64,000 nucleotides of DNA from contig JAUXOM010000134.1 of NCBI GenBank assembly GCA_030682175.1, positions 62,001 to 126,000 on the forward strand, in the 5' to 3' direction. Positions within the stretch are counted from its first letter, which is position 1; every line of letters starts with the position of its first letter. The DNA is from Rhodocyclaceae bacterium. Its GTDB lineage: Bacteria > Pseudomonadota > Gammaproteobacteria > Burkholderiales > Rhodocyclaceae. Shown here piece by piece: positions 5,879-22,330 of this stretch. The position numbers and the translations under genes are program-made. The notes beneath the pieces are model-generated. The model worked only from the letters and a program-made list of their open reading frames with translations, did no database searches and was not told the DNA's origin.

Positions 5879-5896
5879 CTGTCACACCGTTGCAAT
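5879..5896 (+). promoter_or_regulatory. Putative Pho box upstream of first GT4 gene
   Basis: Two heptamers, CTGTCAC and TTGCAAT, separated by 4 bases (11-bp period) lie 24 bp before the chosen ATG at 5920. This matches the Escherichia coli Pho box plan of CTGTCAT-like heptamers spaced by 4. One of five such signals in this island. PhoB binding is inferred. Confidence 0.5.
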
Positions 5897-5919
5897 CTGC
5901 ATCGGGCAAGGTACGCGGC

Positions 5920-7107
5920 ATGAAACCCCATGTTCGCCACGCCCGCTTCCTGCGCGTCCTGATGATCTCGGATGTATATTTTCCGCGCATCAACGGCGTC
6001 TCGACCTCGATCGAGACCTTTCGCGCCGACCTCGCCACCGAGGGCATCGAGGTCAGTCTGATCGCACCCGACTATCCCGAAAACCGCGACGCTCCCGATA
6101 TCTGGCGAGTCCCTTCCTGGCGGGTGCCCTTCGACCCTGAAGATCGGCTGATGCGCTGGCGCTCGCTCAACCACGCGGCCCAGCGCCTCGTTGCCGCGGG
6201 CGTCAACCTGATCCATGTGCAGACGCCCTTCTCCGCCCATTACGCCGGCATGCGCACCGCGCGCCAGTACCGGATACCGGTGCTGGCCACCTACCATACC
6301 CATTTCGAGGAATACATCGCCCATTATCTGCCGGCGCTGCCACGCCCGTGGCTCAAGGCGGCGGCACGCCACATCGCCGCCAGCCAATGCAACCAGCTGG
6401 ACGCCGTGGTGGTCCCCTCGCGTGCCATGCATGAGACGCTGAGCGGCTATGGCGTAAAAGCGCCCCTCCACGTGCTGCCCACCGGCATCCCGATCCGCAA
6501 TTTCTCCGCCGGCAACGGCAAGGCGTTCCGCGCGCGCCACGGCATTGCCGCCGACCGTCCCCTGGCATTGTTCGTCGGTCGGGTCGCCCACGAAAAAAAC
6601 ATCGGTTTTCTCATCGAAGCCATGGTTACCGCCGTACGCTGGCGCCCCGACCTGCTGCTGGTAGTCGCCGGCGAGGGTCCGGCCCTGGTGGCGCTGCGCC
6701 GGCAGACAGCCAACGCCAACCTGGATGAAAACATCCGCTTCGTCGGTTATCTTGATCGCGCCCGGGAATTACCCGACTGCTACGCGGCTGCCGATGTCTT
6801 TGCCTTCGCTTCGCGCACCGAAACCCAGGGCCTGGTCCTGCTTGAAGCCATGGCCGCCGGCCTGCCCGTCTTCGCCCTGGCGGCGATGGGAACACGAGAC
6901 ATACTTGACGTCCAGCGCGGCGCTGTCATCGCGCCGGACGACGCCGTTGCCTTCGGCAATGGGCTGGCGACACTCATCGGCAATCGCGGGCAACTCGACA
7001 AGTTGTCGGCCGAGGCGCGCAACTACGCACTGGAATGGGCCGCGCCAATGCGCGCGCGCCAACTCGCCAGCCTCTATCGCTCGCTGGTAAAGCAAGCGCA
7101 TGAATAG
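5920..7107 (+). CDS. GT4-family glycosyltransferase, possibly diacylglycerol glucosyltransferase
   Basis: 395 residues, GT-B fold. The N-terminal domain starts RVLMISDVYFPRINGVSTS; the acceptor region has YHTHFEEYIAHY, similar to 1,2-diacylglycerol glucosyltransferases, and the nucleotide-sugar domain has the EX7E motif in RTETQGLVLLEAMAAG. HVLPTGI precedes the C-terminal domain. A role in making phosphorus-free glycolipids is inferred from these motifs, from the Pho-box-like site just upstream and from the neighbours (PlcP-like, OlsB-like, Pit). Donor and acceptor are not known; a lipopolysaccharide or other mannosyl/glucosyl transfer is the alternative. Confidence 0.85.
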   Translation: MKPHVRHARFLRVLMISDVYFPRINGVSTSIETFRADLATEGIEVSLIAPDYPENRDAPDIWRVPSWRVPFDPEDRLMRWRSLNHAAQRLVAAGVNLIHVQTPFSAHYAGMRTARQYRIPVLATYHTHFEEYIAHYLPALPRPWLKAAARHIAASQCNQLDAVVVPSRAMHETLSGYGVKAPLHVLPTGIPIRNFSAGNGKAFRARHGIAADRPLALFVGRVAHEKNIGFLIEAMVTAVRWRPDLLLVVAGEGPALVALRRQTANANLDENIRFVGYLDRARELPDCYAAADVFAFASRTETQGLVLLEAMAAGLPVFALAAMGTRDILDVQRGAVIAPDDAVAFGNGLATLIGNRGQLDKLSAEARNYALEWAAPMRARQLASLYRSLVKQAHE

Positions 7108-7166
7108 TTCCACACTCACGGCATTCCCGCCCCACCAAGGTACGGTTCGCCCTGGGGCGGCTTGGC

Positions 7167-7213
7167 GCCGTCCCGCCAGTCCCACAGGGATTTCCCTCGG
7201 TCACGCCGACTTT
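7167..7213 (-). repeat. Dispersed 23-bp motif, split by a 24-bp insert
   Basis: Minus-orientation copy of the motif AAAGTCGGCGCTGGC plus GGGACGGC, seen as GCCGTCCCGCCAG at 7167-7179 and CGCCGACTTT at 7204-7213. Joined, the two pieces rebuild the complete consensus; 24 unrelated bases separate them. Confidence 0.6.
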
Positions 7214-8170
7214 CTAGGTCGACGGGGGGCCACCGATGGCCGACCAGAAGTTGCCCTGGCGATTGAGAAATTCGTCGCAACTCATATAGTGCGTACCATC
7301 GCAGGAAAAAGTGAGGCTGACCATGCCGTTGAAAATGTTGATCGATGCCGAGCGCAGGTAGATGGTCTGGTCGGCAAGGCGCAGTTCGCGCATCGCGGCG
7401 AGCATGGGTTTCACGCTCTCGCGCGTTATCAGCGCATCCTTCGGCCACGGCTGGGAGGGGTAGAGCAGGCAGACGTCGGGATCGGCCAGCGCCTCCTGGT
7501 CGAAGATGCGGTAGCGAAACGGATCGTCGATGAACCAGCCAGTGGCGCGACTGCTGGAAAAATGGATCACCACCTGGAACATGCCGCGCTCGGTGATGAG
7601 ATCTTCGAGGATGGCCTGCGCCTGAATGATGTCGCGGTCCATCTGACTCTCCACCCGCTGCTGCAGAAAGACGCCACTGCGGATCGACGGATCACCCTTG
7701 ACCTGCCGCCACTCGCGCGACTCCTCGCTCAATGCGGCGGCAACCGGCAGATCGCGCAGATCGAAGTCGGCACCGAGAAAGCCGAGTTCCTTCTCGCCGT
7801 CGCGCACGATATGGAGTGCCGTCAGCGAGGGGCGCCCCGTCAAGCTGACATAGGCGTCGGAAAGCAGGAAACCCCAGGATGGCAGCGGTTCCCTCATATA
7901 GGGCCGCTGCGAACGGTCGCGGCCGAAATGGCTCGGGGTGATGCGCTCGGCGTCGACGTTGTCGCTGATCTGCACGCCGGCACTGTCGAGCGCATAGATT
8001 GAGACCACCCGGGGAATCCCGCCGCAACCGAGGGCCAGCAGATCGTTCAGGCGCTGGCGGTCGCCCCACACCGAGACGCACAAACCGGCCAGCCGCGCCA
8101 GCGGTTCGTGCAGCCACTCCGCCAGTTCGGCGCGCTTGCGATAGATATCGTCTTTCCAATGTTCATCCAT
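7214..8170 (-). CDS. PDC/Cache-type sensor domain protein
   Basis: 318 residues, no signal peptide or membrane helix visible. The middle part (about 55-160) resembles a PDC/Cache-like ligand-binding sensor: VVSIYALDSAGVQISDNV, RSQRPYMREPLP, DAYVSLTGRPSLTALHIVRD and GFLGADFDLRDLP follow the usual pattern of secreted or cytosolic Cache domains. There is no obvious output domain. It is transcribed away from the CYTH-CHAD gene, and the Pho-box-like site lies in the shared upstream region. Ligand unknown. Confidence 0.72.
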   Translation of the reverse strand: MDEHWKDDIYRKRAELAEWLHEPLARLAGLCVSVWGDRQRLNDLLALGCGGIPRVVSIYALDSAGVQISDNVDAERITPSHFGRDRSQRPYMREPLPSWGFLLSDAYVSLTGRPSLTALHIVRDGEKELGFLGADFDLRDLPVAAALSEESREWRQVKGDPSIRSGVFLQQRVESQMDRDIIQAQAILEDLITERGMFQVVIHFSSSRATGWFIDDPFRYRIFDQEALADPDVCLLYPSQPWPKDALITRESVKPMLAAMRELRLADQTIYLRSASINIFNGMVSLTFSCDGTHYMSCDEFLNRQGNFWSAIGGPPST

Positions 8171-8227
8171 GGCCTATGGACTCCTTTGCAGGGAAAAGGT
8201 TGCTGCGTTGCACCATTTTATGTTTAT

Positions 8228-8250
8228 GCCGTCCTGTCAGCGCCGACTTT
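8228..8250 (-). repeat. Dispersed 23-bp motif copy
   Basis: Intergenic, minus orientation, two mismatches to consensus. It lies between the divergent PDC-sensor and CYTH-CHAD genes, 10 bp before the Pho-box-like site. Confidence 0.8.
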
Positions 8251-8260
8251 TATGAGCAAG

Positions 8261-8278
8261 CTGTCATCGAACTGTAAT
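8261..8278 (+). promoter_or_regulatory. Putative Pho box upstream of CYTH-CHAD gene
   Basis: CTGTCAT and CTGTAAT separated by 4 bases. The first heptamer is identical to the Escherichia coli Pho box repeat and the second differs at one or two positions. It lies 62 bp before the ATG at 8341. The best single match in the window. Confidence 0.65.
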
Positions 8279-8340
8279 AATTTTTCGGCCGGTGGCGACA
8301 TACAATTCAAATAATCCCATATTTGTAACCGGGTCATTAC

Positions 8341-9903
8341 ATGGCAATCCAGACTGCCCTCACGCTCGACCTGCCCGAGGCAGCGCAAGCCCTGTTCATG
8401 CGCCACCCACTGCTCCGGGGCGCGGCCAGTCGGCACAACGAGTCGCTGCTCAGCATCTATTACGACACGCGCAGATTCACGCTGCGCCAGCAGGGCATCA
8501 TCCTGCGCATCAGGAAGCACGGCGACGGCTGGTTGCAGACGGTCAAACACATTTCCGCTGCGGCAGCCACACCCATCACGCCGTACGAATGGGAAGTGCC
8601 CTATCCAAATCGCTTCGACTTCTCTGCGGTCGATGATGAAGCCGTGCAGCGCGTGCTGGAAAAACCAAAAGTCGCCAGGGGCCTCACCGCCCTGTTCGAA
8701 ACCAGCTTCCGCCGCACCACCTGGCAGTTGGAGCCGGAACACGGCACGATTCTTATGGTCATTCTCGATCGCGGCTGGATCGCTGCAAACGGCCGCCGGG
8801 GTTCGATCTCCGATGTCGAGATCAAGCTGGTGAGCGGATCAAAGGCCCAGCTCTACGCAGTTGCCTTCGCCCTTGCTGCGCGCATTCCGCTGACGCCCGA
8901 GTTCGAGTCCAAGGCCGCACGCGGCTACCGCCTGGCCAGCAACACCCGCCCCGCACCGCTGCGCGCCTCTGTCGTGCCCCTCACCGCTACCGACCATCCA
9001 TTGGCCGCCTTCCGCACCATCGCCCTCAACTGTCTGGTGCACCTGCAGCAAAACCATGCCGGCGCCATGCTCGGCGCTGATCCCGAGTATGTGCACCAGA
9101 TGCGTGTGGCGACACGGCGGCTCTTCGCGGCCATGCGCATGTTCGCGCCGGTGCTACCGACGGAGTTCGCTGCGCAATTATCGCCTCCTCTGCGCGCATT
9201 GATGGCCACGCTCGGCCGCGCCCGCGACCTCGACGTGCTGCTGGCCGAGATCGTCGCCCCCGTCCAGGCGGCGCTTGCCGACGATCCACGCATCCTTGCG
9301 CTAGCCGGCATCCTCGCCGACCGCCTCCATGTCACGCACCACGAGACATCCAGCTTCCTCGCGCGACCCGACTACGGTCACCTGCTCCTGCTGGCAGCCT
9401 CGCTGCTGCACGGCAAGGCCCTGGCCGAACCGGAAGCGCCGGCGACAGACCAGCCCGCCCCCACCCTGCTCGATTTCGCCCAGCGCCGCCTGCGCAAGCT
9501 GCAAGTGCGTACACATCTTCTGGCGGAACTCGCCCGCATCGACGACCCGTCCTCGCTGCATGCCCTGCGCATCGCCATCAAGCGCCTGCGCTACGCGCTC
9601 GAGTTCTTCGGCCCCTTGCTGCCCAAGCGTTCTTTCGCGACGGCGACGAAGCAACTGGCAACGCTACAGGACAAACTCGGCCAGCTCAATGACCTGGCCA
9701 ATGCCGGAACGGTACTGATGGCCTGCGCCGGCGCAGACCCAGGTCTGCGCGAAGCGGTGGCGCTGGTCGGCGGCTGGCACGGTGCGCGCCACGTCGCACT
9801 ACTCGGCTGCGTACCCGAGCATCTGAAGGCCGTACGCAAGCTGCGCCTCCCGAAACTCGCAAGAAGCTCGCCGGGCCACCCCAAGAGTTGCCCGGTCCCT
9901 TGA
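8341..9903 (+). CDS. CYTH-CHAD domain protein (inorganic triphosphatase-like, degenerate CYTH signature)
   Basis: 520 residues. The N-terminal ~200 residues form a CYTH fold (YYDTRRFTLRQQGIILRIRK, WLQTVKH, YEWEVP), the family of inorganic triphosphatases such as YgiF. The C-terminal ~300 residues form a CHAD helical domain with repeated conserved His/Arg elements (VHQMRVATRRLFAAMRMF, LHALRIAIKRLRYALEFF), known to bind polyphosphate. Oddity: the catalytic EXEXK signature expected in strand 1 reads QTALT, and a later acidic strand reads DVEIKL, so metal binding may be lost. A Pho-box-like site precedes it and the PlsC-like gene follows, suggesting a phosphate-linked operon. Confidence 0.92.
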   Translation: MAIQTALTLDLPEAAQALFMRHPLLRGAASRHNESLLSIYYDTRRFTLRQQGIILRIRKHGDGWLQTVKHISAAAATPITPYEWEVPYPNRFDFSAVDDEAVQRVLEKPKVARGLTALFETSFRRTTWQLEPEHGTILMVILDRGWIAANGRRGSISDVEIKLVSGSKAQLYAVAFALAARIPLTPEFESKAARGYRLASNTRPAPLRASVVPLTATDHPLAAFRTIALNCLVHLQQNHAGAMLGADPEYVHQMRVATRRLFAAMRMFAPVLPTEFAAQLSPPLRALMATLGRARDLDVLLAEIVAPVQAALADDPRILALAGILADRLHVTHHETSSFLARPDYGHLLLLAASLLHGKALAEPEAPATDQPAPTLLDFAQRRLRKLQVRTHLLAELARIDDPSSLHALRIAIKRLRYALEFFGPLLPKRSFATATKQLATLQDKLGQLNDLANAGTVLMACAGADPGLREAVALVGGWHGARHVALLGCVPEHLKAVRKLRLPKLARSSPGHPKSCPVP

Positions 9904-9961
9904 AGAAAGAACGACACGCAGCGGCGTTCGTGGGGTGGGTCCCATTAACCGCCATGCCGGC

Positions 9962-10720
9962 ATGCTGACCGCGTTGCGCGCTGGCGTACGGCTGTCACGC
10001 CTTGCCCTGCATTTGCTTGCCGGTGCGCTCGCCGCCGCCCTCGTCTATTCCCGGCTGTCGGCCGGGCGACGCCGCAGCCTGAAGCAGCGCTGGTCGCGGC
10101 AACTACTGGAATGTGTCGGCGTCGAGCTACAGGTCTGCGGCACGGTGGCCGAAGGCCTGCTCGTCGCCAACCACATCTCGTTTCTCGACATTTACGTCAT
10201 CAACGCGGTGGCACCCGCCGCCTTCGTCGCCAAGGACGAGGTGCGACGCTGGCCGCTGATCGGCTGGCTCGCGACGCAGACCGACACCATTTTTCTCGAA
10301 CGCGGCAGCCGCAGCGCAGTACAACACGCCCGTACCAAGCTCGTCGATCATTTGCGTGCCGGCCGGCGCGTGGCGCTGTTCCCCGAGGGCACCACAACGA
10401 CGGGAGAGCGCATGTTGCCATTCCACGGCGCCCTGTTCCAGGCCGCCATCGACGCCGGCGCGCTGGTCACGCCGCTGGCGCTGCGCTACACCGGCAGCGA
10501 CGGCCGGCGCAGCGCGGTGCCGGCCTATGTCGACGCCATCACGCTGTGGCAAGCCTTGCGCGCCATCGTCACCGCCGACGGTCTGGTGGCACACATCGAG
10601 GTGCTGCCGCCAATTCTGGCGCACTGCACCGCAAGCCAACCCCGCGCCGACCGGCGCCACCTCGCCGCCAACGCGCATCGTGACATCGCCCACGCCATTG
10701 GCGCGCCACGCCCGGATTAA
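9962..10720 (+). CDS. PlsC/OlsA-like 1-acylglycerol-3-phosphate acyltransferase family protein
   Basis: About 252 residues from the ATG at 9962; a GTG at 9935 is an alternative start. The acyltransferase HX4D motif is NHISFLD, and the second motif is LFPEGTTTTG; an N-terminal hydrophobic helix (about 10-30) anchors it to the inner membrane. PlsC-like proteins make phosphatidic acid, but OlsA, which O-acylates lyso-ornithine lipid, has the same motifs. Because an OlsB-like gene lies 4.4 kb downstream in the same island and the upstream gene has a Pho-box-like site, OlsA is a reasonable candidate function. The sequence alone cannot separate the two. Confidence 0.85.
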   Translation: MLTALRAGVRLSRLALHLLAGALAAALVYSRLSAGRRRSLKQRWSRQLLECVGVELQVCGTVAEGLLVANHISFLDIYVINAVAPAAFVAKDEVRRWPLIGWLATQTDTIFLERGSRSAVQHARTKLVDHLRAGRRVALFPEGTTTTGERMLPFHGALFQAAIDAGALVTPLALRYTGSDGRRSAVPAYVDAITLWQALRAIVTADGLVAHIEVLPPILAHCTASQPRADRRHLAANAHRDIAHAIGAPRPD

Positions 10721-10782
10721 GGACTTGTTTCAGTCTGGTGACGGTTCCTGCCGGGATACCGGAAGCAATTCACTCGAAGCAA

Positions 10783-10822
10783 CGGTCACCTGCTTGAAAT
10801 ATTCCTGTCATGGCACCGCAAT
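10783..10822 (+). promoter_or_regulatory. Putative tandem Pho boxes upstream of pyruvate-kinase-like gene
   Basis: Four heptamers at exact 11-bp spacing: CGGTCAC, TTGAAAT, CTGTCAT and CCGCAAT, each separated by 4 bases. The third is a perfect Pho repeat. The array ends 55 bp before the ATG at 10878, a normal place for PhoB activation. Confidence 0.6.
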
Positions 10823-10877
10823 ACCATGCATTGGAGTTCGGGTTCTCTACCCTGGTCACGGAAACAAGCAAACACAG

Positions 10878-12731
10878 ATGGCACAAAAAGAGCGCACGCA
10901 AAATGACGAATGGGATGTCGGCGAGTGTCGGGCGCTGATTGACGAATTGTGGTCCCTGCGCGAGGCCATGCTCGCGGCTGAAGCGCAGCTGGCGCCATGG
11001 ATCGGGAAGGTCGATCAAGGCTTCCTCCCTAGCGCACGCAACCTCGCGCATTACCTGGCGCTGCGACACAAGGACCGGCGACCGTTGCAGGACAAGCTCG
11101 CCAGGATCGGGCTTTCTTCGCTCGGGCGGGCCGAATCGAATGTGCTCGCCAATCTCGACAAGGTGCTCGGCATCCTGCATCGTCTGGTGGCGCTGCCATG
11201 GCAATCGCATGCGACGGACGAACCCGTGGGCATCAAGCGCAGCCGCAAGCTGCTGGAGCAGCATACGGCCAGCCTGCTGGGTGTTCCGCCCACGGAAAGG
11301 GCAGTACGCATCATGGTCACCCTGCCCTCCGAGGCGGCTGGTGACTATGGCCTGATCCGCCAACTCGTCGATTCGGGCATGGATATCGCCCGCATCAATT
11401 GCGCCCACGATGGCGCTACGGAATGGAAAGCGATGGTGCGTCACGTCCGTCGCGCAGCCAAGGCCATAGGGCGTCCCGTGCGCATCCTGATGGACTTGGG
11501 CGGACCGAAGCTGCGCACCGACCACCTTCCGGCGAGTACGCCCGTGTTGAAACTGAGGCCAGTTCGCGATGAGTTGGGGCGCGTGCAGATGCCAGTGCGC
11601 CTGGGGCTGTATCCGTCCGGCAGGCCGGCACAAGTGAAGGGCGCCAGCGTCAGCATCGGGGTTGAAGCGGACTGGCTGTCCCGGATTAAGCAGGACGATC
11701 AGCTGCACCTCATCGATGCGCGCGACGCGCGGCGGGATTTCCGGGTGGTGGACCGCGACGCGGATGGCGTGCTGGCAGAGTCTTCGCAGACCAGCTATCT
11801 GGTTCCCGAAACACGGATCGGCCATCGTCACAAGGGCCACCGTACGAGCATCACGCGGATCGTCGACCTGCCGACTCAACCGGGAAGCCTGCGCCTGTCG
11901 CGCGGCAGCATGATCCAACTCGTACGCAGGAAAGTCGGCGCTGGCAAGACGGCACTCCAATCGCAGGAGATCGGCTGCACGCTGCCCGAAATCTTCGGGC
12001 AGGTCAGCGTCGGCGAGCGCATCTGGTTCGACGATGGTCGCATCGGCGGCATCATCCGCCAGGTTGCTGCCGACCGGCTGGAAGTGGAAATCACCCATGC
12101 GCGCGAAGCGGGGGAGAAGCTCGCCGGCGACAAGGGCATCAATCTTCCCGACAGCCAGCTCGAACTGCCTGCCCTGACGGACAAGGATATCGAGGACCTG
12201 GCGACCGTTGCCCAGGAAGCCGACATGGTCGGACTGTCGTTCGCGCAACGGGCGAGCGATGTCGAGGCCCTGCGGGGGCATCTGCAGACGCTGGGTGCCG
12301 AACATCTCGGCATCGTCCTCAAGATCGAGACGCGCCGCGGGTTCGAAAACCTGCCCGAACTGCTCTATGCGGCGCTGGCGGGGAAAGCGGCCGGCATCAT
12401 GATCGCCCGCGGCGACCTCGCCGTGGAATGTGGCTACGAGCGCCTGGCGGAAGTGCAGGAAGAAATCCTCTGGGCGGCGGAAGCCGCCCATTTGCCCGTA
12501 ATCTGGGCCACACAAGTCCTTGAAACCCTGGCGCAGACCGGCCTGCCGTCGCGCGCCGAAATCACCGATGCAGCCATGGGCGAGCGTGCGGAATGCGTCA
12601 TGCTCAACAAGGGGCCGCACATCCTGGATGCCATGCACACCCTCGACGATATCCTGCGCCGCATGCAATCGCATCAGTCGAAGAAACGCTCCTTGCTCCG
12701 CGCCCTCAACGCTTGGGGAATCGGAGCCTGA
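10878..12731 (+). CDS. Pyruvate-kinase-like protein with N-terminal extension and no C-terminal regulatory domain
   Basis: 617 residues from the ATG at 10878. Residues 1 to about 135 form an extra helical region not found in standard pyruvate kinase. Then come the barrel elements: MVTLPSEAAGDYGLIRQLVDSGMD opening split around DIARINCAHD, MDLGGPKLRTD, DKGINLPDSQ, KIETRRGFEN, GIMIARGDLAVECGYERL and PSRAEITDAAMGERAECVML. The expected allosteric C-terminal domain is absent: the protein stops about 45 residues after the barrel. Key Lys and Glu (KIE) and the ARGD loop are present, so PEP/ADP chemistry is possible. Tandem Pho-box-like repeats lie upstream, pointing to phosphate-starvation control. 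One copy of the dispersed 23-bp motif lies within it (11931-11953). Confidence 0.82.
   Translation: MAQKERTQNDEWDVGECRALIDELWSLREAMLAAEAQLAPWIGKVDQGFLPSARNLAHYLALRHKDRRPLQDKLARIGLSSLGRAESNVLANLDKVLGILHRLVALPWQSHATDEPVGIKRSRKLLEQHTASLLGVPPTERAVRIMVTLPSEAAGDYGLIRQLVDSGMDIARINCAHDGATEWKAMVRHVRRAAKAIGRPVRILMDLGGPKLRTDHLPASTPVLKLRPVRDELGRVQMPVRLGLYPSGRPAQVKGASVSIGVEADWLSRIKQDDQLHLIDARDARRDFRVVDRDADGVLAESSQTSYLVPETRIGHRHKGHRTSITRIVDLPTQPGSLRLSRGSMIQLVRRKVGAGKTALQSQEIGCTLPEIFGQVSVGERIWFDDGRIGGIIRQVAADRLEVEITHAREAGEKLAGDKGINLPDSQLELPALTDKDIEDLATVAQEADMVGLSFAQRASDVEALRGHLQTLGAEHLGIVLKIETRRGFENLPELLYAALAGKAAGIMIARGDLAVECGYERLAEVQEEILWAAEAAHLPVIWATQVLETLAQTGLPSRAEITDAAMGERAECVMLNKGPHILDAMHTLDDILRRMQSHQSKKRSLLRALNAWGIGA
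11931..11953 (+). repeat. Dispersed 23-bp motif copy inside pyruvate-kinase-like gene
   Basis: Plus orientation, two mismatches, read in frame as KVGAGKTA. Confidence 0.8.
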
Positions 12732-12735
12732 AACT

Positions 12736-12855
12736 TCAACTCAGGCGGGATACCTCCATCTCACTGATCACCGCGCCGATCGCATCGACGGCCCGGCGCA
12801 TTTCGGCAGCGCCGATCACCCCAAGGCAACCGACGCGGAAGGTATCCACGGTGGT
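12736..12855 (-). pseudogene. Remnant of a PhnW-like aminotransferase 3' end
   Basis: On the minus strand about 40 codons stay open from 12855 to a TGA at 12736 and read TTVDTFRVGCLGVIGAAEMR and on to EMEVSRLS. This resembles the C-terminus of 2-aminoethylphosphonate:pyruvate transaminase and related class V aminotransferases (DTFRIGCIG-type end). A stop lies immediately upstream and no other part of the gene is present, so it is a decayed fragment. Its identification as PhnW and not another class V aminotransferase is from recalled similarity only. Confidence 0.5.
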
Positions 12856-12874
12856 TAGCGATTCCTTAATCTAT

Positions 12875-12903
12875 CTGCAATCTCCCCGTCATCGTCGTGT
12901 CAC
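12875..12903 (+). promoter_or_regulatory. Putative tandem Pho boxes upstream of second GT4 gene
   Basis: Three heptamers, CTGCAAT, CCGTCAT and GTGTCAC, each separated by 4 bases (11-bp period); a weaker fourth (CCTTAAT) lies another 11 bp upstream at 12864. The array ends 24 bp before the ATG at 12928 of the Agt-like gene. Confidence 0.5.
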
Positions 12904-12927
12904 ACGGCGCCCGCAACATGCGTGATC

Positions 12928-14106
12928 ATGCGCGTCGCCCTTGTCACCGAAACCTTCCCGCCCGAAGTCAACGGCGTCGCCATGACGCTGGGGCGACTCG
13001 CCGACGGCCTGCGCCAGCGCGGCCACCAACTGCACCTGGTGCGTCCGCGCCAGCAGCGTGGCGAACAGCCGGTGCTGACGGCCGACTTGCGCGAGCTGCT
13101 GGTCGGCAGCCTGCCGCTACCGCGCTACCCGGGCCTGCGCTTCGGCCTGCCGGCGCACGGCGCGTTGCGCAAAGCCTGGCGCGAACAGCGGCCGGACATC
13201 GTCCATGTCGCCACCGAAGGGCCGCTGGGCTGGTCGGCGCTGACCGCGGCGCGGGGGCTCGACCTGCCGATCAGTTCGAGCTTCCATACCAATTTTGACG
13301 CCTACAGCCGGCACTACGGCATCGGCTGGATGCGTGGCAGCATCGAGCGCTACCTGTGCCGCTTCCACAACCGCAGCCAGATCACGCTGGTGCCGACGCA
13401 GCAGATCGCCCGCCGTCTCGCCAGCGCCGACTTTCTGAATTTGCAGGTGATGGCGCGCGGCGTCGACACCCTGCTCTTCAATCCGCGACGCCGCTCCACG
13501 GAATTGCGTCAGCAATGGGGCGCGTACGCCGACACGCTGGTCGTCACCATGGTCGGCCGTCTGGCCGCCGAGAAGAACCTGATGCTCGCGGTCGCTGCCT
13601 TCGACGCACTGCACCGGACATATCCGAATTCACGGCTGCTGTTCGTCGGCGACGGCCCGCAAAAGTCGGCGCTGGCGGCACGGCACCCCGAGTACATCTT
13701 CGCCGGCATGCGCCACGGTGAGGATCTCGCCGCGCACTATGCCTCGGCCGACATCTTCCTGCTCCCCAGCCTCACCGAGACCTACGGCAACGTCACGCTC
13801 GAGGCCATGGCCAGCGGGCTCGGCGTCGTCGCCTTTGCCAGTGCCGCCGCCCTTGAATTGATCGATGACGGCCGTAACGGACTGCTGGTGAACCCCGGCG
13901 ACGAGCAGTCTTTCATCAATGCGGCCATTTCGCTCGCCGTCTCCCCGGGACTGCTTGCCCGCCTGCGCCTGCGTGCCCCGGCGCGCGTGGCCAGCCTCGA
14001 CTGGGACAAGATCCACGACAGCTTCGCCGGCTTGCTCGAAAATCTCGTGCAGATGCATGCGCGGCGCCAGGACGCCAGGGAGATGTTTGCCATTGCTCCG
14101 GACTGA
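12928..14106 (+). CDS. GT4-family glycosyltransferase (Agt/MgtA-like)
   Basis: 392 residues from the ATG giving MRVALVTETFPPEVNGVAMT. GT-B fold with acceptor motif SSFHTNFDAYSRHYG, the VMARGVDTLLFNP segment and the nucleotide-sugar EX7E motif TETYGNVTLEAMASG. It belongs to the GT4 group that includes lipid glycosyltransferases Agt and SQD2 and mannosyltransferase MgtA. It is followed after 69 bp by a PlcP-like gene, the same pairing known for Agt and PlcP in phosphate-starvation lipid remodelling. Two copies of the dispersed 23-bp motif lie inside it in different reading frames. Confidence 0.87.
   Translation: MRVALVTETFPPEVNGVAMTLGRLADGLRQRGHQLHLVRPRQQRGEQPVLTADLRELLVGSLPLPRYPGLRFGLPAHGALRKAWREQRPDIVHVATEGPLGWSALTAARGLDLPISSSFHTNFDAYSRHYGIGWMRGSIERYLCRFHNRSQITLVPTQQIARRLASADFLNLQVMARGVDTLLFNPRRRSTELRQQWGAYADTLVVTMVGRLAAEKNLMLAVAAFDALHRTYPNSRLLFVGDGPQKSALAARHPEYIFAGMRHGEDLAAHYASADIFLLPSLTETYGNVTLEAMASGLGVVAFASAAALELIDDGRNGLLVNPGDEQSFINAAISLAVSPGLLARLRLRAPARVASLDWDKIHDSFAGLLENLVQMHARRQDAREMFAIAPD
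13412..13434 (-). repeat. Dispersed 23-bp motif copy inside Agt-like gene (1)
   Basis: Minus orientation, one mismatch; encodes part of RRLASADF. Confidence 0.82.
13662..13684 (+). repeat. Dispersed 23-bp motif copy inside Agt-like gene (2)
   Basis: Plus orientation, one mismatch; encodes QKSALAARH, a different reading frame from the copy 230 bp upstream. Confidence 0.82.
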
Positions 14107-14175
14107 CTTTCATGATGCGTTGGCTTCGCCCCCGACCATGAAAGTGGCCCACCCCCCTTCCCTGATCGTTAACCC

Positions 14176-15039
14176 ATGACCCGACGAGTTCGCGCCATCT
14201 TCCTCTCCGACATCCATCTCGGTACGCGCGGCTGCCAGGCTGATCGCCTGCTCGACTTCCTGCGCGACCATGAAGCAGAATACCTCTTCCTGGTGGGCGA
14301 TATCATCGATTTCTGGGTCATGAATCGCGGCATCCAATGGTCGGCGGCGCAGAACACCGTGGTGCAGAAACTGCTGCGTCGCGCCCGTTACGGCGAAAAA
14401 ATCTTCCTCATCCCGGGCAATCACGACGAGGCGCTGCGCGAATACCTCGACATGAATTTCGGCGGCATCCAGGTGGTCGACGAATACATCCACATCGCCG
14501 CCGACGGCCGACGTTATCTGTTGATCCACGGCGACGAATTCGACCAGGTGACGCGCCATCATCGCTGGGTGGCGCTACTCGGCGACATCGCCTACAACGG
14601 GCTGGTGCGGATCAATGCCTGGCTGTCGTGGCTGCGGCGCCGCCTCAATCGCCCCGGCTACTGGTCGCTCGCCGGCTATGCCAAGCGCAAGGTCAAGACA
14701 GCGGTGAGCTTCATTTTCGACTTCGAGGACTCGGTAATCCGCGCCGCGCGCGAACGCGGCGTCGATGGCGTGATCTGCGGTCACATCCACAGTGCGACCA
14801 TCCGCGAGGCCGACGGCATTACCTACCTCAACTGCGGCGACTGGGTCGACAGTTGCACGGCCATCGTCGAGCATCTCGACGGCAGCATGGAACTGCTTCA
14901 TCACTCCGCACCGGCGCAGCTACCCCTGTTCCAGGCGGTGATCACTTCATCCAGGGAGCCACCGGGGACGTTCCCTGAACAAGCGCCCGCCGCCCCGCTT
15001 GATTCACATCATCTTAATCATTCTGCAAAACTCTTGTAA
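14176..15039 (+). CDS. PlcP-like metallophosphoesterase (annotated in databases as UDP-2,3-diacylglucosamine diphosphatase family)
   Basis: 287 residues. Metallophosphoesterase motifs in order: FLSDIHLGTRGCQ, VGDIIDFW, PGNHDE, HGDEFD and CGHIH, with GDWVDSCTA near the end. LpxH proper has a GNRDF-type motif and different spacing, whereas GNHDE, the TRGCQ loop and the FGGI and GDWV(D/E)SCTA elements fit PlcP, the phospholipase that splits phosphatidylcholine/phosphatidylglycerol-type lipids to diacylglycerol under phosphate limitation. Context (Agt-like gene before, OlsB-like gene after, Pho-box-like sites) supports PlcP. True LpxH activity is the alternative. The last codons overlap the Pho-box-like repeats of the next gene. 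Confidence 0.85.
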   Translation: MTRRVRAIFLSDIHLGTRGCQADRLLDFLRDHEAEYLFLVGDIIDFWVMNRGIQWSAAQNTVVQKLLRRARYGEKIFLIPGNHDEALREYLDMNFGGIQVVDEYIHIAADGRRYLLIHGDEFDQVTRHHRWVALLGDIAYNGLVRINAWLSWLRRRLNRPGYWSLAGYAKRKVKTAVSFIFDFEDSVIRAARERGVDGVICGHIHSATIREADGITYLNCGDWVDSCTAIVEHLDGSMELLHHSAPAQLPLFQAVITSSREPPGTFPEQAPAAPLDSHHLNHSAKLL

Positions 15040-15040
15040 C
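15012..15040 (+). promoter_or_regulatory. Putative Pho-box array upstream of OlsB-like gene
   Basis: Heptamers TCTTAAT, CTGCAAA and TTGTAAC at 11-bp spacing; only the last two match the consensus well. The array covers the end and stop codon of the upstream gene and ends 50 bp before the ATG at 15091. Confidence 0.4.
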
Positions 15041-15090
15041 CGACTCTTCCGACAATGTCGTCACACCCCCCAGACGACAAGGAGAACAGC

Positions 15091-15858
15091 ATGCTGCAAA
15101 CCCAAGAATGGCAAGCCCAACGCAAGAATGATCATCAACACTATTCAATCGGCCTGGCGCTCAATGCGCACGAGGTCAAGGAGTCACAGCGCCTGCGCTA
15201 CCGCGTCTTTGTCGAGGAACTCGGCGCCAGGATTCAAACGCCCATCGCCGGCGTCGATGCCGACCGCTTCGATCGGCATTGCGAGCACCTGATTGTCCGC
15301 GACATATCGAACGCCGGTGCCGGCAAGGTCGTCGGCACCTACCGCATCCTGACGCCCGAGGCCGCCTGCCGGGCCGGCAACTACTACAGCGAAACCGAAT
15401 TCGATCTCACCCGCCTGCGCTACCTGCGGGATGGCATGGTCGAGGTCGGTCGGTCCTGCATTCATCCCGACTACCGCAATGGCACGGTGATCGCCCTGCT
15501 GTGGAGCAAGCTGGCCGAATTCATGGCTCACCACAACTACCGCACCCTGATCGGCTGCGCCTCGATCAGCATGGCCGACGGCGGCCACAACGCCGCCAAC
15601 CTGTTCCTGAAATTGAGCGACACGCACCTCGCGCCGCTCGAATACCGCGTTTTCCCGCGCGAGCCCCTGCCCTTCGAACGTTTGTCCAACACTGGCGCCG
15701 CCGCAATACCGCCACTGCTCAAGGGTTACCTGCGCGCCGGTGCCTGGATCTGCGGCGAGCCGGCCTGGGATCCCGACTTCAACACCGCCGACCTGCCGCT
15801 GCTGCTGCCGATGTCGCGCCTCACCCCGCGCTACGCGCAGCACTTCATGCCGGGCTGA
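15091..15858 (+). CDS. olsB: OlsB-like acyl-ACP:L-ornithine N-acyltransferase (GNAT fold)
   Basis: 255 residues from an ATG preceded by AAGGAGAA, which decides this start over an upstream in-frame ATG. Family features: ESQRLRYRVFVEELGA near the N-terminus, VVGTYRILTPEAA, YYSETEFDLTRL, VEVGRSCIHPDYRNG and the C-terminal YLRAGAWICGEPAWDPDFNT with LPMSRLTPRYAQHF. OlsB catalyses the first step of ornithine lipid synthesis, attaching a 3-hydroxyacyl group to ornithine. Ornithine lipids contain no phosphorus and are often induced by phosphate starvation, which suits the neighbours. The partner O-acyltransferase may be the gene at 9962. Confidence 0.88.
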   Translation: MLQTQEWQAQRKNDHQHYSIGLALNAHEVKESQRLRYRVFVEELGARIQTPIAGVDADRFDRHCEHLIVRDISNAGAGKVVGTYRILTPEAACRAGNYYSETEFDLTRLRYLRDGMVEVGRSCIHPDYRNGTVIALLWSKLAEFMAHHNYRTLIGCASISMADGGHNAANLFLKLSDTHLAPLEYRVFPREPLPFERLSNTGAAAIPPLLKGYLRAGAWICGEPAWDPDFNTADLPLLLPMSRLTPRYAQHFMPG

Positions 15859-15950
15859 GAACCCCGCCTGATCGTCTCATCCCGGGCGAGCGCCCTGCCC
15901 AGATGCCTGCAGCCAGCCGGCGATGATTCATCCTTAAAACCTCAGCTCAC

Positions 15951-16078
15951 ACCACGGAGGACACGGAGATCACGGAGAAAAGGCGCAAACGGACAAGATG
16001 CGGGCACACCCGACGGATGACGTCGATTGCTTCCGTAACGACTTGTTTTCGCTCCGTGATCTCCGTGTCCTCCGTGGT
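15951..16078. repeat. Large inverted repeat with 27-bp perfect arms
   Basis: Arms at 15951-15977 and 16052-16078 are perfect reverse complements and contain repeated CCACGGAG/ACACGGAG units; the spacer is 74 bp. It lies in the 375-bp gap between the OlsB-like gene and pit; the rest of the gap shows nothing recognisable. It could form a long hairpin and act as terminator or be a mobile palindrome. Confidence 0.85.
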
Positions 16079-16233
16079 CAACTACTTTTTCTAGGTTCAT
16101 AAGCATTTGATGTTGTGTGATCTTTTCAGGCACCGGGTGCTCTAAACAGGGCGCCGCGCGTCCCTGCTGGAACTGCCTATGCCCCTGCCAGCAACATGGT
16201 GCGATAATCCGACGTTTTTTCGCTGCGTCGACC

Positions 16234-17817
16234 ATGGAACTCACCAACATCAACGATATCGAGCGCGCCACGCTCAAGGCGCGCCGGGAGATGCTGCGCT
16301 TCGGCCTGGCATTGCTGTTCATCATCGGCGTGATGTTTTACGCCTGGGCGCGCGGCGGGGGCAGCTTTCTGCTGATCATGGCGGCCGTGATCGGCGGTTA
16401 CATGGCCATCAACATCGGCGCCAACGACGTTGCCAACAATGTCGGCCCGGCGGTCGGCTCGCGGGCGCTGACCATGACGGGTGCCCTGATCATTGCGGCA
16501 GTTTGCGAGGCTGCGGGAGCGCTGATCGCCGGCGGTGACGTGGTGCAGACGATCCGTGGTGGCATCATCAGCCAGGACAGCGTGGCCAACGCCGATGTTT
16601 TTGTCTGGCTGATGATGGCCGCACTGCTGGCCGGCGCGATCTGGCTCAACATCGCCACCGCCGTCGGCGCGCCTGTGTCGACAACGCATTCCATCGTCGG
16701 CGGCGTGCTCGGTGCCGGAGTGGCCGCCGGCGGCTGGAGCGTGGCCAACTGGGGCACGATGGGCTACATCGCCGCCAGTTGGGTGATCTCGCCCGTCCTC
16801 GGCGGCATCATCGCCGCCGCCTTTCTTTTCCTCATCAAACGCCGCGTCACCTATCAGACCGACATGATGGCCGCCGCCCGGCGGATGGTTCCCCTGCTGG
16901 TGGCCTTCATGGCCTGGACCTTCACCACCTATCTGATGCTGAAAGGCGTGCGGGCCGTGCTCAATGTGAGCTTTGCCAGTGCCGCCCTGACCGGCCTGGC
17001 CGTGGCCATCATCGTCTTTTTATTGGTGAAACCGCGCGTCGAGCGGCAATCGCGCAGCGGCGAAAACGCCGTCGGGACCGACAAGCCGCGCGTCAACAGC
17101 ATGTTCACCGTACCGCTGATCTTTGCCGCCGCCCTGCTCAGCTTCGCGCATGGCGCCAACGACGTGGCCAACGCGGTCGGCCCGCTGGCCGCGATTGCCG
17201 ACGTGCTGGGCGGCGCCAGCCTCGGCAAGTCGGCGCACATCCCGCTGTGGGTCATGATGATCGGTGCCATCGGCATCGCCATCGGCCTCGCCCTGTTCGG
17301 CCCCAAGCTGATCCGCACCGTCGGCTCGGAAATCACCGAACTCGACCAGATCCGCGCCTTTTGCATCGCCATGGCGGCCACCATCACCGTCATCATCGCC
17401 AGCCAGCTCGGCCTGCCGGTCAGTTCGACCCACATCGCCGTCGGCGGCATTTTTGGCGTGGGCTTCCTGCGCGAATATCTCAAGTCGAATTACGCGCGCA
17501 TGGTCGAGGAAATCGAGTCGCACCACCCGGCAGACGATCAGGCGGCCATCGAAGCCTTCCTGCGGCGCTTCGACAAGGCGCCGATCCATGAAAAAGGCAA
17601 CATGCTCGAAGTCCTGAAACGCGAAGCCAAGGCCCGCGCGAACCCCGAACTGTTTTCGTCCCAGGAACGCAAGGGCCTGCGCAAGGTCTATCGCAAGGAA
17701 CTGGTCAAACGCTCGCAACTGCTGAAGATCGTCGCGGCCTGGATCATCACCGTGCCGGCCTCGGCACTGCTCGGCGCATTATTCTTTTTCGCCTTGCGCG
17801 GCGCGATGTTGCCCTGA
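16234..17817 (+). CDS. Pit-family inorganic phosphate transporter
   Basis: 527 residues from the ATG giving MELTNINDIERA. The two Pit signature repeats are present, IGANDVANNVGPAVGS (about 67) and HGANDVANAVGPLAA (about 306), with about ten transmembrane segments and paired PVSTTHSIVGG and PVSSTHIAVGG motifs. A soluble loop and a charged C-terminal region (about 420-500) precede a final helix. It moves phosphate, usually as metal-phosphate with protons. It closes the phosphate/lipid island. The last 22 bp of the gene, GCGCGGCGCGATG through TGCCCTGA, are repeated 1,252 bp downstream at the end of the toxin-like gene. Confidence 0.95.
   Translation: MELTNINDIERATLKARREMLRFGLALLFIIGVMFYAWARGGGSFLLIMAAVIGGYMAINIGANDVANNVGPAVGSRALTMTGALIIAAVCEAAGALIAGGDVVQTIRGGIISQDSVANADVFVWLMMAALLAGAIWLNIATAVGAPVSTTHSIVGGVLGAGVAAGGWSVANWGTMGYIAASWVISPVLGGIIAAAFLFLIKRRVTYQTDMMAAARRMVPLLVAFMAWTFTTYLMLKGVRAVLNVSFASAALTGLAVAIIVFLLVKPRVERQSRSGENAVGTDKPRVNSMFTVPLIFAAALLSFAHGANDVANAVGPLAAIADVLGGASLGKSAHIPLWVMMIGAIGIAIGLALFGPKLIRTVGSEITELDQIRAFCIAMAATITVIIASQLGLPVSSTHIAVGGIFGVGFLREYLKSNYARMVEEIESHHPADDQAAIEAFLRRFDKAPIHEKGNMLEVLKREAKARANPELFSSQERKGLRKVYRKELVKRSQLLKIVAAWIITVPASALLGALFFFALRGAMLP
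17796..17817 (+). repeat. Left 22-bp direct repeat of toxin-antitoxin module (3' end of pit)
   Basis: Identical 22 bp to 19048-19069, ending in the stop codon TGA of both genes; a further GCAAC is shared after one mismatch. Encodes the shared C-terminus RGAMLP. Confidence 0.9.
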
Positions 17818-17845: not shown

Positions 17846-17881
17846 TGGACATGAACTCCCCAATGGGGATATATTGTCCCC
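17846..17881 (+). promoter_or_regulatory. Promoter and palindromic operator of the toxin-antitoxin-like module
   Basis: TGGACA (17846-17851) and TATATT (17870-17875) are spaced by 18 bp and would start transcription at about 17882, one base before the ATG at 17883, so the mRNA may be leaderless. Alternating half-sites TCCCC, GGGGA and TCCCC (17857-17881) overlap the -10 box, fitting repression by the HTH protein itself. Confidence 0.55.
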
Positions 17882-17882
17882 T

Positions 17883-18341
17883 ATGAAACAGCAAAATGCG
17901 CTCCGCCAGGCCATGCGGCAAAGCGGCCAGACCCGTATCCAGATGGCTGCAGCCTTGGGGGTGTCGCGACGCGCGCTCGACAAATGGCTGTTGCCCGAAA
18001 CCTCGCAGGATTTTCGGCGCATGCCGGAAACTGCCCTGCGCCTGCTCGCCAACCAGTACGGCGTGCGCAAGTCGGCCGATCTGTCGATGCCCTACGACTG
18101 GTCGAATCCGGCCATGAATGACGAGGCGCTGATTCTTTCCGTCCTGCGTCGGGCGAACTTTCCCGATCTGGTCCGTGTCTGTGCCGATTTCGGCATGAAC
18201 AAGGTCAAGAGCCGGGTCGATGCCGCCCTTGCTCTGGTGCCGGAAGCCGAACGCAACCTCCTCGGGCGCATTCTGCTACGCATGCTGCGCAGCATCGAGA
18301 TCGTTTTCGAAGAATTCAAGCACGCGCGCCCAGTCACATGA
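17883..18341 (+). CDS. HTH-domain putative antitoxin
   Basis: 152 residues from the ATG giving MKQQNALRQAMRQ. Residues 18-40 form a helix-turn-helix (TRIQMAAALGVSRRALDKW), suitable for binding its own promoter. No ribosome site is visible because the predicted transcript starts at the ATG. The stop overlaps the next gene's ATG by 4 bp, the usual layout for a cognate antitoxin followed by its toxin. The C-terminal half (SVLRRANFPDLVRVC onward) is of unknown fold. Assignment as antitoxin is inferred from the partner. Confidence 0.75.
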   Translation: MKQQNALRQAMRQSGQTRIQMAAALGVSRRALDKWLLPETSQDFRRMPETALRLLANQYGVRKSADLSMPYDWSNPAMNDEALILSVLRRANFPDLVRVCADFGMNKVKSRVDAALALVPEAERNLLGRILLRMLRSIEIVFEEFKHARPVT

Positions 18342-21496: not shown

Positions 21497-21568
21497 GGCT
21501 ATCCAGATTTCACCGCAACCAATGTTACGCACTACCCTAATTTTCGTGATGCGCTGCCCAGCGCTTTT

Positions 21569-21690
21569 GTAGGTCGGGCGCAAGCCCGACACGCCATTGC
21601 GGGCATGGCGCATCCGTCGGGCTGGCGCCCGACCTACATCACGCAATTTAGGCCGGCACTACCCTAACGTAGGTCGGGCGCAAGCCCGAC
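21569..21690. repeat. REP/BIME repeats left of RAYT gene
   Basis: Three REP units: GTAGGTCGGGCGCAAGCCCG (21569-21590), an inverted unit (21616-21637) and another direct unit (21669-21690). Each can fold as a hairpin of CGGGC and GCCCG. The 69-bp pair 21569-21637 recurs almost unchanged at 22210-22278. Confidence 0.9.
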
Positions 21691-21713
21691 AATCAAACCC
21701 GCAAGCCCGACAA

Positions 21714-22160: not shown

Positions 22161-22179
22161 GGGTGCCGTTGGGATGGGT

Positions 22180-22278
22180 GTCGGGCTTGCGCCCGACCTA
22201 CGGACTTTTGTAGGTCGGGCGCAAGCCCGACACGCCACTGCGGGCATGGCGCATCTGTCGGGCTGGCACCCGACCTAC
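22180..22278. repeat. REP/BIME repeats right of RAYT gene
   Basis: Three REP units at 22180-22201 (inverted), 22210-22231 (direct) and 22257-22278 (inverted). The last two repeat the left BIME with about three base changes. Confidence 0.9.
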
Positions 22279-22330
22279 GTTGTGGCTGATGACTGCGACA
22301 GCAAACGTGAACTTTCACGGTGAACTTGCA

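What the first reader, a model, noticed from the sequence alone, without database searches (positions are those of the whole stretch)
5879..17817. Putative Pho-controlled membrane-lipid remodelling island
Within 12 kb lie a diacylglycerol-glucosyltransferase-like GT4, a CYTH-CHAD protein, a PlsC/OlsA-like acyltransferase, a pyruvate-kinase-like protein, an Agt-like GT4 followed by a PlcP-like phosphoesterase, an OlsB-like gene and a Pit transporter. Five transcription units have heptamers of the Pho-box type at 11-bp spacing in front. Known systems (PlcP with Agt; OlsB) replace phospholipids by glycolipids and ornithine lipids under phosphate starvation. Here both routes, phosphate uptake and a polyphosphate-binding-type protein appear joined in one locus with a variant pyruvate kinase. 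I do not know this combination as a described unit.
Basis: partly seen in the sequence, partly recalled or inferred. Interest (0 to 1): 0.88.

Follow-up and report, generated by a model that had tools for sequence, protein, structure and literature searches.

The report
Phosphate-starvation lipid-swap gene island
A betaproteobacterium carries side by side genes predicted to replace phosphorus-containing membrane lipids with sugar and ornithine lipids when phosphate runs out; that recipe is known, but a spare version of the glycolytic enzyme pyruvate kinase seems to have joined the same phosphate-starvation response, which looks new.

Summary
Core: two lipid-type GT4s, a PlcP-type phosphoesterase (not LpxH; the genome has its own), OlsB- and OlsA-like acyltransferases and a CYTH-CHAD protein. 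Pho-box-like sites precede four transcription units (GTa, CHAD-PlsC, PK, GTb-PlcP) and are crowded here compared with the rest of window and genome. OlsB has no clear box here (8 of 14 relatives do); Pit has none and lay beside the cluster in no fetched relative. The module recurs in Betaproteobacteria in shuffled orders, often with dgkA and pst-phoU. So this is a member of known PlcP-Agt/Ols lipid remodelling. The probably new part is the pyruvate kinase, a PRK14725/Pyk2-type isozyme without the C-terminal domain. Across the order it has Pho-like boxes (17 of 39 loci; 12 of 32 after removing near-copies and biased loci) against 11-13 of 225 other genes of the same stretches and 0 of 22 and 0 of 20 canonical PKs, and it lies near pst, ppk/ppx-CHAD, olsAB-dgkA or GT genes (10 of 26 versus 0 of 20). 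I propose an overlooked Pho-regulon PK. Nothing here is expression data.

The parts
5879..5896 (+). Pho-box-like site before GTa (3 mismatches)
5920..7107 (+). GTa: GT4 glycosyltransferase, lipid type (ORF open from TTG 5890, which the box overlaps; ATG 5920 lies about 24 bp after it)
   Evidence: homologue in 54 of 80 named PlcP loci
7214..8170 (-). hypX: 318-aa protein of no known family, divergent from CHAD, conserved beside it in L154 (92%) and L092 (73%)
8261..8278 (+). Pho box before CYTH-CHAD, 1 mismatch
8341..9903 (+). CYTH-CHAD protein; CYTH hallmark ExExK lost (QTALT)
9935..10720 (+). PlsC-family acyltransferase, OlsA-like; probably one operon with CHAD
   Evidence: its homologue lies beside OlsB in 13 of 15 OlsB loci fetched away from PlcP (L131, L138-L151)
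10783..10822 (+). tandem Pho-type half-sites before PK (sites at 10783, 10794, 10805; 4, 3 and 3 mismatches)
10878..12731 (+). variant pyruvate kinase, PRK14725/Pyk2 type: N-terminal helical extension, A and B domains, no C domain
12875..12903 (+). tandem Pho box before GTb (3 and 2 mismatches)
12922..14106 (+). GTb: GT4 glycosyltransferase; nearest solved relatives are phosphatidylinositol mannosyltransferases (PimA)
14176..15039 (+). PlcP-type metallophosphoesterase (putative phospholipase C)
15091..15858 (+). OlsB-like ornithine N-acyltransferase
16234..17817 (+). Pit-type phosphate transporter; adjacent, but no evidence that it belongs to the module

Best explanation
This is a PhoB-controlled membrane-lipid remodelling locus. 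When phosphate runs low, PhoB is predicted to bind the 11-bp-spaced boxes in front of GTa, CHAD-PlsC, PK and GTb-PlcP. PlcP cleaves phospholipid to diacylglycerol, which GTa and GTb glycosylate to phosphorus-free glycolipids, while OlsB and the OlsA-like acyltransferase make ornithine lipid; phosphate is thereby freed. CYTH-CHAD probably binds polyphosphate or a triphosphate without cleaving it, because its ExExK is lost. The pyruvate kinase is a working second isozyme lacking the C-terminal domain; I infer that it keeps PEP-to-pyruvate/ATP flux going when the phosphorylated effectors of the housekeeping Lys117-type enzyme change under phosphate stress. Shown here: gene families, boxes, conservation. 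Inferred: PhoB binding, substrates, lipid products, role of CYTH-CHAD and of the kinase.
For: Genome has a PhoB over the curated cut-off (358.2 vs 296.2 bits). The same box type (3 mismatches each) precedes phoB itself (tandem) and 3 of 4 pstS-like genes of this genome, 2 of the 4 being over the family cut-off and both of those having it. Named relatives: boxes from 200 nt upstream to 20 nt inside in 29 of 79 PlcP, 12 of 48 GTb and 8 of 14 OlsB genes against 1.8, 1.2 and 0.0 expected from shuffles. All 39 PlcP-bearing genomes among 61 also have an OlsB match. Of 80 named PlcP loci: GTa in 54, GTb 47, dgkA 37, pstB 25, OlsB 14, phoU 13, CHAD 10 (loci run from 4 to 21 kb, so lower bounds). Tree: 39 PlcP-like and 20 LpxH-like proteins separate at 100/100; own LpxH scores 275 vs cut-off 134, the window protein 56. 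PK: catalytic residues kept in 29 of 29, PK fold. Literature: PlcP-Agt1/Agt2 and the same consensus in P. aeruginosa (PMC8528852, passages); C. glutamicum Pyk2 of the same architecture is a working PK (PMC5112673, abstract and passages).
Against: No expression, binding or lipid data. OlsB lacks a clear box here; Pit has none. The box controls are not clean: in the PlcP set the reverse complement gave 7 and the reversed pattern 9 of 79; GTa only 5 of 55 against 1.6; tpiA upstreams gave 3 of 8 against 0.2 (perhaps shared divergent regions). The 5 strong sites outside the island that I checked are not before recognisable phosphate genes. NCBIfam equivalog cut-offs are not reached by OlsB (173 vs 350), OlsA (130 vs 300) or the GTs. 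No characterised PlcP or Agt sequence could be compared. Pyk2 of C. glutamicum is FBP-activated despite lacking the C domain, so 'unregulated' is not safe.
Confidence: 0.8

Rival explanations
1. The pyruvate kinase is not part of the Pho response; it came by chance into a lipid-remodelling locus and its boxes are chance.
For: No hit in the stretches held of the close relatives L092, L153 and L154 nor in the two same-genus genomes searched; its nearest relatives in the tree, L132 and L240, show no box; the box label is not clustered on the kinase tree beyond shuffled labels (about 100 of 500 shuffles as low); presence does not go with PlcP (4 of 7 vs 35 of 54).
Against: Boxes in 17 of 39 PRK14725-type loci vs 11 of 225 other genes of the same stretches, or 13 of 225 with a wider window; after dropping the window's own locus, near-copies and loci found through PlcP still 12 of 32 (Fisher p 3e-6; sequences related, so indicative). 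Canonical PKs 0 of 22 and, re-anchored, 0 of 20. P-module genes nearby in 10 of 26 vs 0 of 20 canonical PK loci (p 0.0013), in different contexts: pst (L135, L285; also L185, L195, L221), ppk and/or ppx with CHAD (L280, L281, L284), olsAB-dgkA (L271, L275), GT4s (L268, L270, L277).
Confidence: 0.22
2. The GT4 pair and phosphoesterase belong to envelope polysaccharide or lipid A synthesis, not to phosphate-starvation lipid remodelling.
For: GT4s match many polysaccharide families weakly; the only solved relatives of the phosphoesterase found by sequence are LpxH.
Against: Own LpxH elsewhere; tree separation; Pho boxes; pst, phoU, dgkA and olsAB company; the two best NCBIfam profiles of each GT are lipid GTs (Mgs, GlcN-PG synthase), though below cut-off.
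Confidence: 0.08
3. The variant kinase serves polyphosphate/ATP turnover (ADP rephosphorylation beside PPK) rather than glycolytic flux as such.
For: CHAD and polyP genes around it: L281 ppk-CHAD-PK-MBL hydrolase, L280 CHAD-PK-MBL hydrolase-ppx-phoU, L284 phoU-ppx-PK-CHAD-ppk.
Against: Only 3 of 26 loci; the other 23 show no ppk or ppx hit in the stretch held. L284's kinase (genome G065) is just under the PRK14725 cut-off (631 vs 642).
Confidence: 0.25

Closest known systems
PlcP-Agt1-Agt2 lipid renovation of Pseudomonas aeruginosa (PA3219, PA3218, PA0842)
   Same: PlcP-type phosphoesterase beside a GT4, two GT4s in all, the same Pho-box consensus (PMC8528852, passages)
   Different: Here both GT4s, olsA/olsB-like genes, CYTH-CHAD and a kinase are in one locus; which GT makes which glycolipid is unknown
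PHO-dependent lipid-remodelling set of Pseudomonas putida BIRD-1 (PlcP, DagK, OlsA, OlsB)
   Same: Same functions, reported as phosphate-responsive, with PlcP and OlsAB absent in the phoBR mutant (PMC5082522, passages)
   Different: In this genome the DgkA gene is elsewhere (C23); in 37 of 80 named PlcP loci a dgkA is in the neighbourhood, often between the two GT4s
Corynebacterium glutamicum Pyk2 (NCgl2809)
   Same: 67.6-kDa pyruvate kinase with an N-terminal extension of about 120 aa and no C-terminal domain (PMC5112673); C. glutamicum is one of two control genomes that ring with PRK14725 (that the hit is NCgl2809 is inferred)
   Different: Pyk2 is co-transcribed with ldhA, induced by oxygen lack and K+-dependent; the window enzyme has Lys at position 117 and a Pho-box context
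CHAD phosins (polyphosphate-granule proteins)
   Same: CHAD domain; polyP-gene company in some relatives (L280, L281, L284)
   Different: CYTH hallmark lost in the 6 island proteins examined, kept in the 3 from loci with ppk and/or ppx

Membership tests
PlcP (phosphate-starvation phospholipase C) | calcineurin-like metallophosphoesterase with all metal-binding motifs | tested here: met
   PF00149 55 bits; DxH, GDxxD, GNHD, HGD, GHIH residues invariant in 20 aligned homologues (motif roles recalled)
PlcP (phosphate-starvation phospholipase C) | separate from LpxH | tested here: met
   100/100 split of 39 vs 20 proteins; LpxH models 56 and 54.5 bits vs cut-offs 134 and 190
PlcP (phosphate-starvation phospholipase C) | next to agt-type GT, Pho box | tested here: met
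   about 70 bp after GTb, which has a tandem box; no box of its own here; 29 of 79 relatives have an own box
PlcP (phosphate-starvation phospholipase C) | high identity to a characterised PlcP; phospholipase activity | not testable with these tools
   I found no characterised PlcP sequence among the loci fetched; activity needs the bench
LpxH | score over curated cut-off | tested here: not met
Agt diacylglycerol glycosyltransferases | GT4 beside plcP, lipid-GT-like | tested here: met
Agt diacylglycerol glycosyltransferases | curated equivalog cut-off of a known lipid GT | tested here: not met
   Mgs 148 vs 400 (GTa), GlcN-PG synthase 151 vs 480 (GTb); no model named Agt among the 25 hits shown for each
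OlsB / OlsA ornithine-lipid synthesis | curated equivalog cut-off | tested here: not met
   OlsB 173 vs 350, OlsA 130 vs 300, each the best hit; models appear to be built on alphaproteobacterial proteins (inferred from their names)
OlsB / OlsA ornithine-lipid synthesis | olsB and olsA adjacent | tested here: inconclusive
   4.4 kb apart in the window; homologues adjacent in 13 of 15 OlsB loci fetched away from PlcP
PRK14725 / Pyk2-type pyruvate kinase | score over NF011314 cut-off; no C domain; N-terminal extension | tested here: met
   773.5 vs 642; only the barrel model PF00224 matches; ends about 55 aa after the SRAE motif; model
PRK14725 / Pyk2-type pyruvate kinase | pyruvate kinase activity | not testable with these tools
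   R73, N75, D113, R120, K270, E272, R294, D296, T328 kept in 29 of 29 (roles of these positions recalled)
Pho regulon | PhoB in genome and Pho boxes above background | tested here: met
Pho regulon | phosphate- and PhoB-dependent expression | not testable with these tools
   no expression data
catalytic CYTH triphosphatase | ExExK motif | tested here: not met
   QTALT in the window; hallmark per PMC8233210 passages

The most novel reading that the evidence does not exclude
PRK14725-type pyruvate kinase is an unrecognised, widely scattered Pho-regulon isozyme of the order that holds this genome: under phosphate starvation PhoB switches on a C-domain-less pyruvate kinase that takes pyruvate/ATP formation out of the control of the sugar-monophosphate and AMP pools used by the housekeeping enzyme, so that central carbon flux and membrane-lipid replacement are switched together, here from one locus.
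Probability: 0.5. Interest if true: 0.65.

Novelty: new variant of a known kind. Interest (0 to 1): 0.52.

Why it matters
The lipid part extends a known phosphorus-saving strategy, described in the papers I saw for alphaproteobacteria, Pseudomonas and methanotrophs, to many Betaproteobacteria, including an Accumulibacter MAG (L205), in an easily recognised gene cluster. The kinase part, if right, shows that a core glycolytic step has a dedicated phosphate-starvation isozyme in bacteria, a direct and cheap test of how cells keep glycolysis running when phosphorylated effectors are scarce.

Tried and rejected
LpxH reading of the phosphoesterase: rejected. K+-independence as the special feature of the variant kinase: rejected, because canonical PKs of the same family also have Lys117 (20 of 20); the distinguishing changes are Ser77 to Ala (28 of 29) and the missing C domain. 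'Allostery-free' kinase: weakened by C. glutamicum Pyk2, which is FBP-activated without a C domain. Kinase tied to PlcP as such: rejected, no co-occurrence. Pit as a module member: rejected. dgkA loss as a feature: the genome has DgkA elsewhere. First ORF calling by length alone picked antisense ORFs in this GC-rich DNA and was replaced by a GC3-weighted one. A C-terminal length comparison was spoiled by a motif that also occurs earlier in the proteins; the absence of the C domain rests instead. The first canonical-PK control used the longest ORF start; it was repeated with starts set near 480 aa, same result. VIA-align was not available.
Full report
What the DNA holds. The window is contig C7:62001-126000 of a 3.49-Mb, 153-contig genome. 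Closest named PlcP relatives are two Rhodocyclaceae MAGs (93% and 91%) and a Sulfurisoma MAG (85%), so the host is of the Rhodocyclaceae type. Likely starts differ slightly: GTa ATG 5920, OlsB ATG 15091, Pit ATG 16234.

Pho boxes. In this genome the consensus CTGTCATN4CTGTCAT has 142 sites at 3 mismatches or fewer, against 69 for the reversed pattern. Single 3-mismatch sites are therefore weak evidence, but the island is crowded: 6 sites lie in 8261-12903, including one of two 1-mismatch sites in the genome. With a Y at the last place 8 of the window's 17 sites fall in the island (19% of length), and spacing 11 is the one that stands out. Four units have sites directly upstream: GTa, CHAD(-PlsC), PK (tandem) and GTb(-PlcP) (tandem). 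OlsB and Pit do not. Positive controls in the same genome: a tandem box before phoB (358 bits to TIGR02154) and boxes before 3 of 4 pstS-like genes, all of 3 mismatches. Negative: of the 7 sites with 2 mismatches or fewer outside the island I looked at 5, and by eye none is in front of a recognisable phosphate gene.

Conservation. Of 61 genomes of the family, 39 have a PlcP-type protein (over 270 bits; one of them in two pieces) and all 39 have an OlsB match. Around 80 named PlcP loci (the best 80 that the single genome-contig scan kept; more existed, and some are the same genomes as G handles) I find GTa in 54, GTb in 47, dgkA in 37, pstB in 25, OlsB in 14, phoU in 13, CHAD in 10, the PK in 3. 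Orders vary: pstSCAB divergent from PlsC-OlsB-GTa-dgkA-GTb-PlcP-CHAD; pstSCAB-phoU-PlcP-GTa-dgkA-GTb; in the nearest relative L154 pstSCAB divergent from GTa, then hypX, CHAD, GTb, PlcP, without PK or olsAB hits in the stretch held. The pst genes of L154 pass NCBIfam cut-offs; representatives of dgkA (two), phoU, ppk and ppx (one each) were checked with Pfam. Pit gave no hit in the 60 family loci or the 80 named ones. Boxes occur upstream of 29 of 79 PlcP, 12 of 48 GTb, 8 of 14 OlsB, 5 of 55 GTa, 2 of 11 CHAD, 2 of 8 PlsC and, unexpectedly, 3 of 8 tpiA genes; shuffles expect 1.8, 1.2, 0.0, 1.6, 0.4, 0.2 and 0.2. Other controls are less flattering: reverse complement and reversed pattern give 7 and 9 of 79 for PlcP, 4 and 1 of 48 for GTb, 3 and 1 of 14 for OlsB.

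PlcP, not LpxH. LpxH models score 56 and 54.5 bits (cut-offs 134, 190), while the genome's own LpxH at C52 scores 275 and 255. In a tree of 39 PlcP-like proteins and 20 LpxH-like proteins taken from the same search, the split has 100/100 support (one short fragment, L130, dropped).

The pyruvate kinase. It passes PRK14725 (773.5 vs 642). The family is sporadic: 41 of 300 genomes of the order at E 1e-100, 36 over the cut-off; in the family search I count 7 of 61 genomes, one of them with the match in two pieces. Residues for PEP, metal and catalysis are kept in 29 of 29; Ser77 is Ala in 28 of 29; Lys117 in 26 of 29 (Arg in 3), as in canonical PKs (20 of 20). The C domain is missing. The predicted model (pLDDT 89.0, pTM 0.81) shows an N-terminal helical domain (14-134), the barrel with the B insertion, and no domain after the helix at 582-596; the 50 Foldseek matches shown from the PDB are all pyruvate kinases. 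Upstream boxes (up to 3 mismatches, coding strand, -250 to +20) occur in 17 of 39 PRK14725-type loci; shuffles expect 0.76, reverse complement 1, reversed pattern 5; canonical PKs 0 of 22 (one too-short locus dropped). Other genes of 26 of these neighbourhoods give 11 of 225, 13 of 225 with a window widened to +170. The 39 include the window's own locus, near-copies and three loci found through PlcP; without them 12 of 32 remain (Fisher p 3e-6). Canonical PKs with re-set starts give 0 of 20. The sequences are related, so the p-values are indicative. In 26 PRK14725-type loci, not counting those found through PlcP, 10 have at least one P-module gene in the stretch held (up to about 9 kb either side, less at contig ends) against 0 of 20 canonical PK loci (p 0.0013); the canonical set comes from this family alone, the variant set mostly from the wider order. 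The contexts differ: beside pstSCAB-phoU (L285) or pstCAB (L135), with ppk and/or ppx and CHAD (L280, L281, L284), beside OlsA-OlsB-dgkA (L271, L275), near GT4s (L268, L270, L275, L277). Three further PlcP loci (L185, L195, L221) read PlcP-GTa-GTb followed by PK and pst on the other strand. Against: nearest PK relatives L132 and L240 show no box, the box label is not clustered on the PK tree beyond shuffled labels (11 changes; about 100 of 500 shuffles as low), and the kinase does not co-occur with PlcP (4 of 7 vs 35 of 54). It is thus linked to phosphate genes in general and joined to the lipid module here and in a few other loci.

Mechanism. PlcP-Agt (PMC8528852, PMC4796936, PMC9239053; passages) and OlsA/B with DagK (PMC5082522; passages) give the lipid scheme. 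For the kinase: a Lys117-type PK of V. cholerae has 0.5% of its activity without ribose 5-phosphate (PMC5501398; abstract and passages), and C. glutamicum Pyk2, of the same architecture as the window enzyme, works in vivo and is not significantly affected by G6P and AMP but is activated by FBP (PMC5112673; abstract and passages). A phosphate-controlled swap from one effector class to another is my inference.

CYTH-CHAD. The ExExK hallmark (PMC8233210; passages) is lost in the six island proteins examined (window, L092, L098, L109, L153, L154) and kept in the three from loci with ppk and/or ppx (L280, L281, L284). The island form is probably a binding protein. That CHAD proteins sit on polyphosphate granules I take from a passage of PMC6416229 citing that work.

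Literature on the kinase. 'PRK14725' is in no held paper; 'pyruvate kinase' with 'Pho box' is in 6, of which I read passages of one (PMC7244524), not about this; the wider searches list nothing on it by title or start of abstract among the 15 and 10 rows shown. At least two of 'Rhodocyclales', 'ornithine lipid' and 'plcP' are in 12 papers, none of which by title is about such a cluster. Subscription papers are mostly not held.

Verdict. Known kind of system, well supported by comparison, with one probably new member, the kinase. All functional statements are predictions.

Noticed in passing
window 7214-8170 (-): 318-aa protein without any Pfam or NCBIfam match, conserved and divergently placed beside CYTH-CHAD in close relatives (L154 92%, L092 73%, L153 fragment 72%).
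   Followed up: partly
window 8341-9903; L092, L098, L109, L153, L154 versus L280, L281, L284: CYTH hallmark ExExK lost in lipid-island CYTH-CHAD proteins but kept in those of loci with ppk and/or ppx.
   Followed up: partly
L098, L109, L275 and 37 of 80 named PlcP loci: A prokaryotic diacylglycerol kinase gene, often between the two GT4s of the lipid module; not in the window's island.
   Followed up: partly
L272, L280, L281: A metallo-beta-lactamase-fold hydrolase of about 253 aa (weakly like cyclic-nucleotide phosphodiesterase) beside the PRK14725-type kinase.
   Followed up: partly
L185, L195, L221, L135: A small unknown ORF (82-118 aa as called) at the downstream end of the PRK14725-type kinase in pst-kinase clusters.
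   Followed up: no
G000 C121:2979, C26:13663, C62:31494, C42:22758, C136:77522: Strong Pho-box matches (1-2 mismatches) that are not before recognisable phosphate genes; false sites or unknown targets.
   Followed up: partly
window 17874-19069: Helix-turn-helix-like gene (weak matches) followed by an AbiEii-like nucleotidyltransferase (PF08843), a likely type IV toxin-antitoxin pair.
   Followed up: no
window 19196-21025: DUF3373 (PF11853) protein, porin-like by eye.
   Followed up: no
window about 15947-16080: Inverted repeat (CACGGAGGACACGGAGATCACGGAG and its complement) between OlsB and Pit; it also produces the only Pho-like matches before Pit.
   Followed up: no
window about 21560-22280: Repeated GTAGGTCGGGCGCAAGCCCGAC elements around a small ORF that looks like a REP-associated transposase (by eye).
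   Followed up: no
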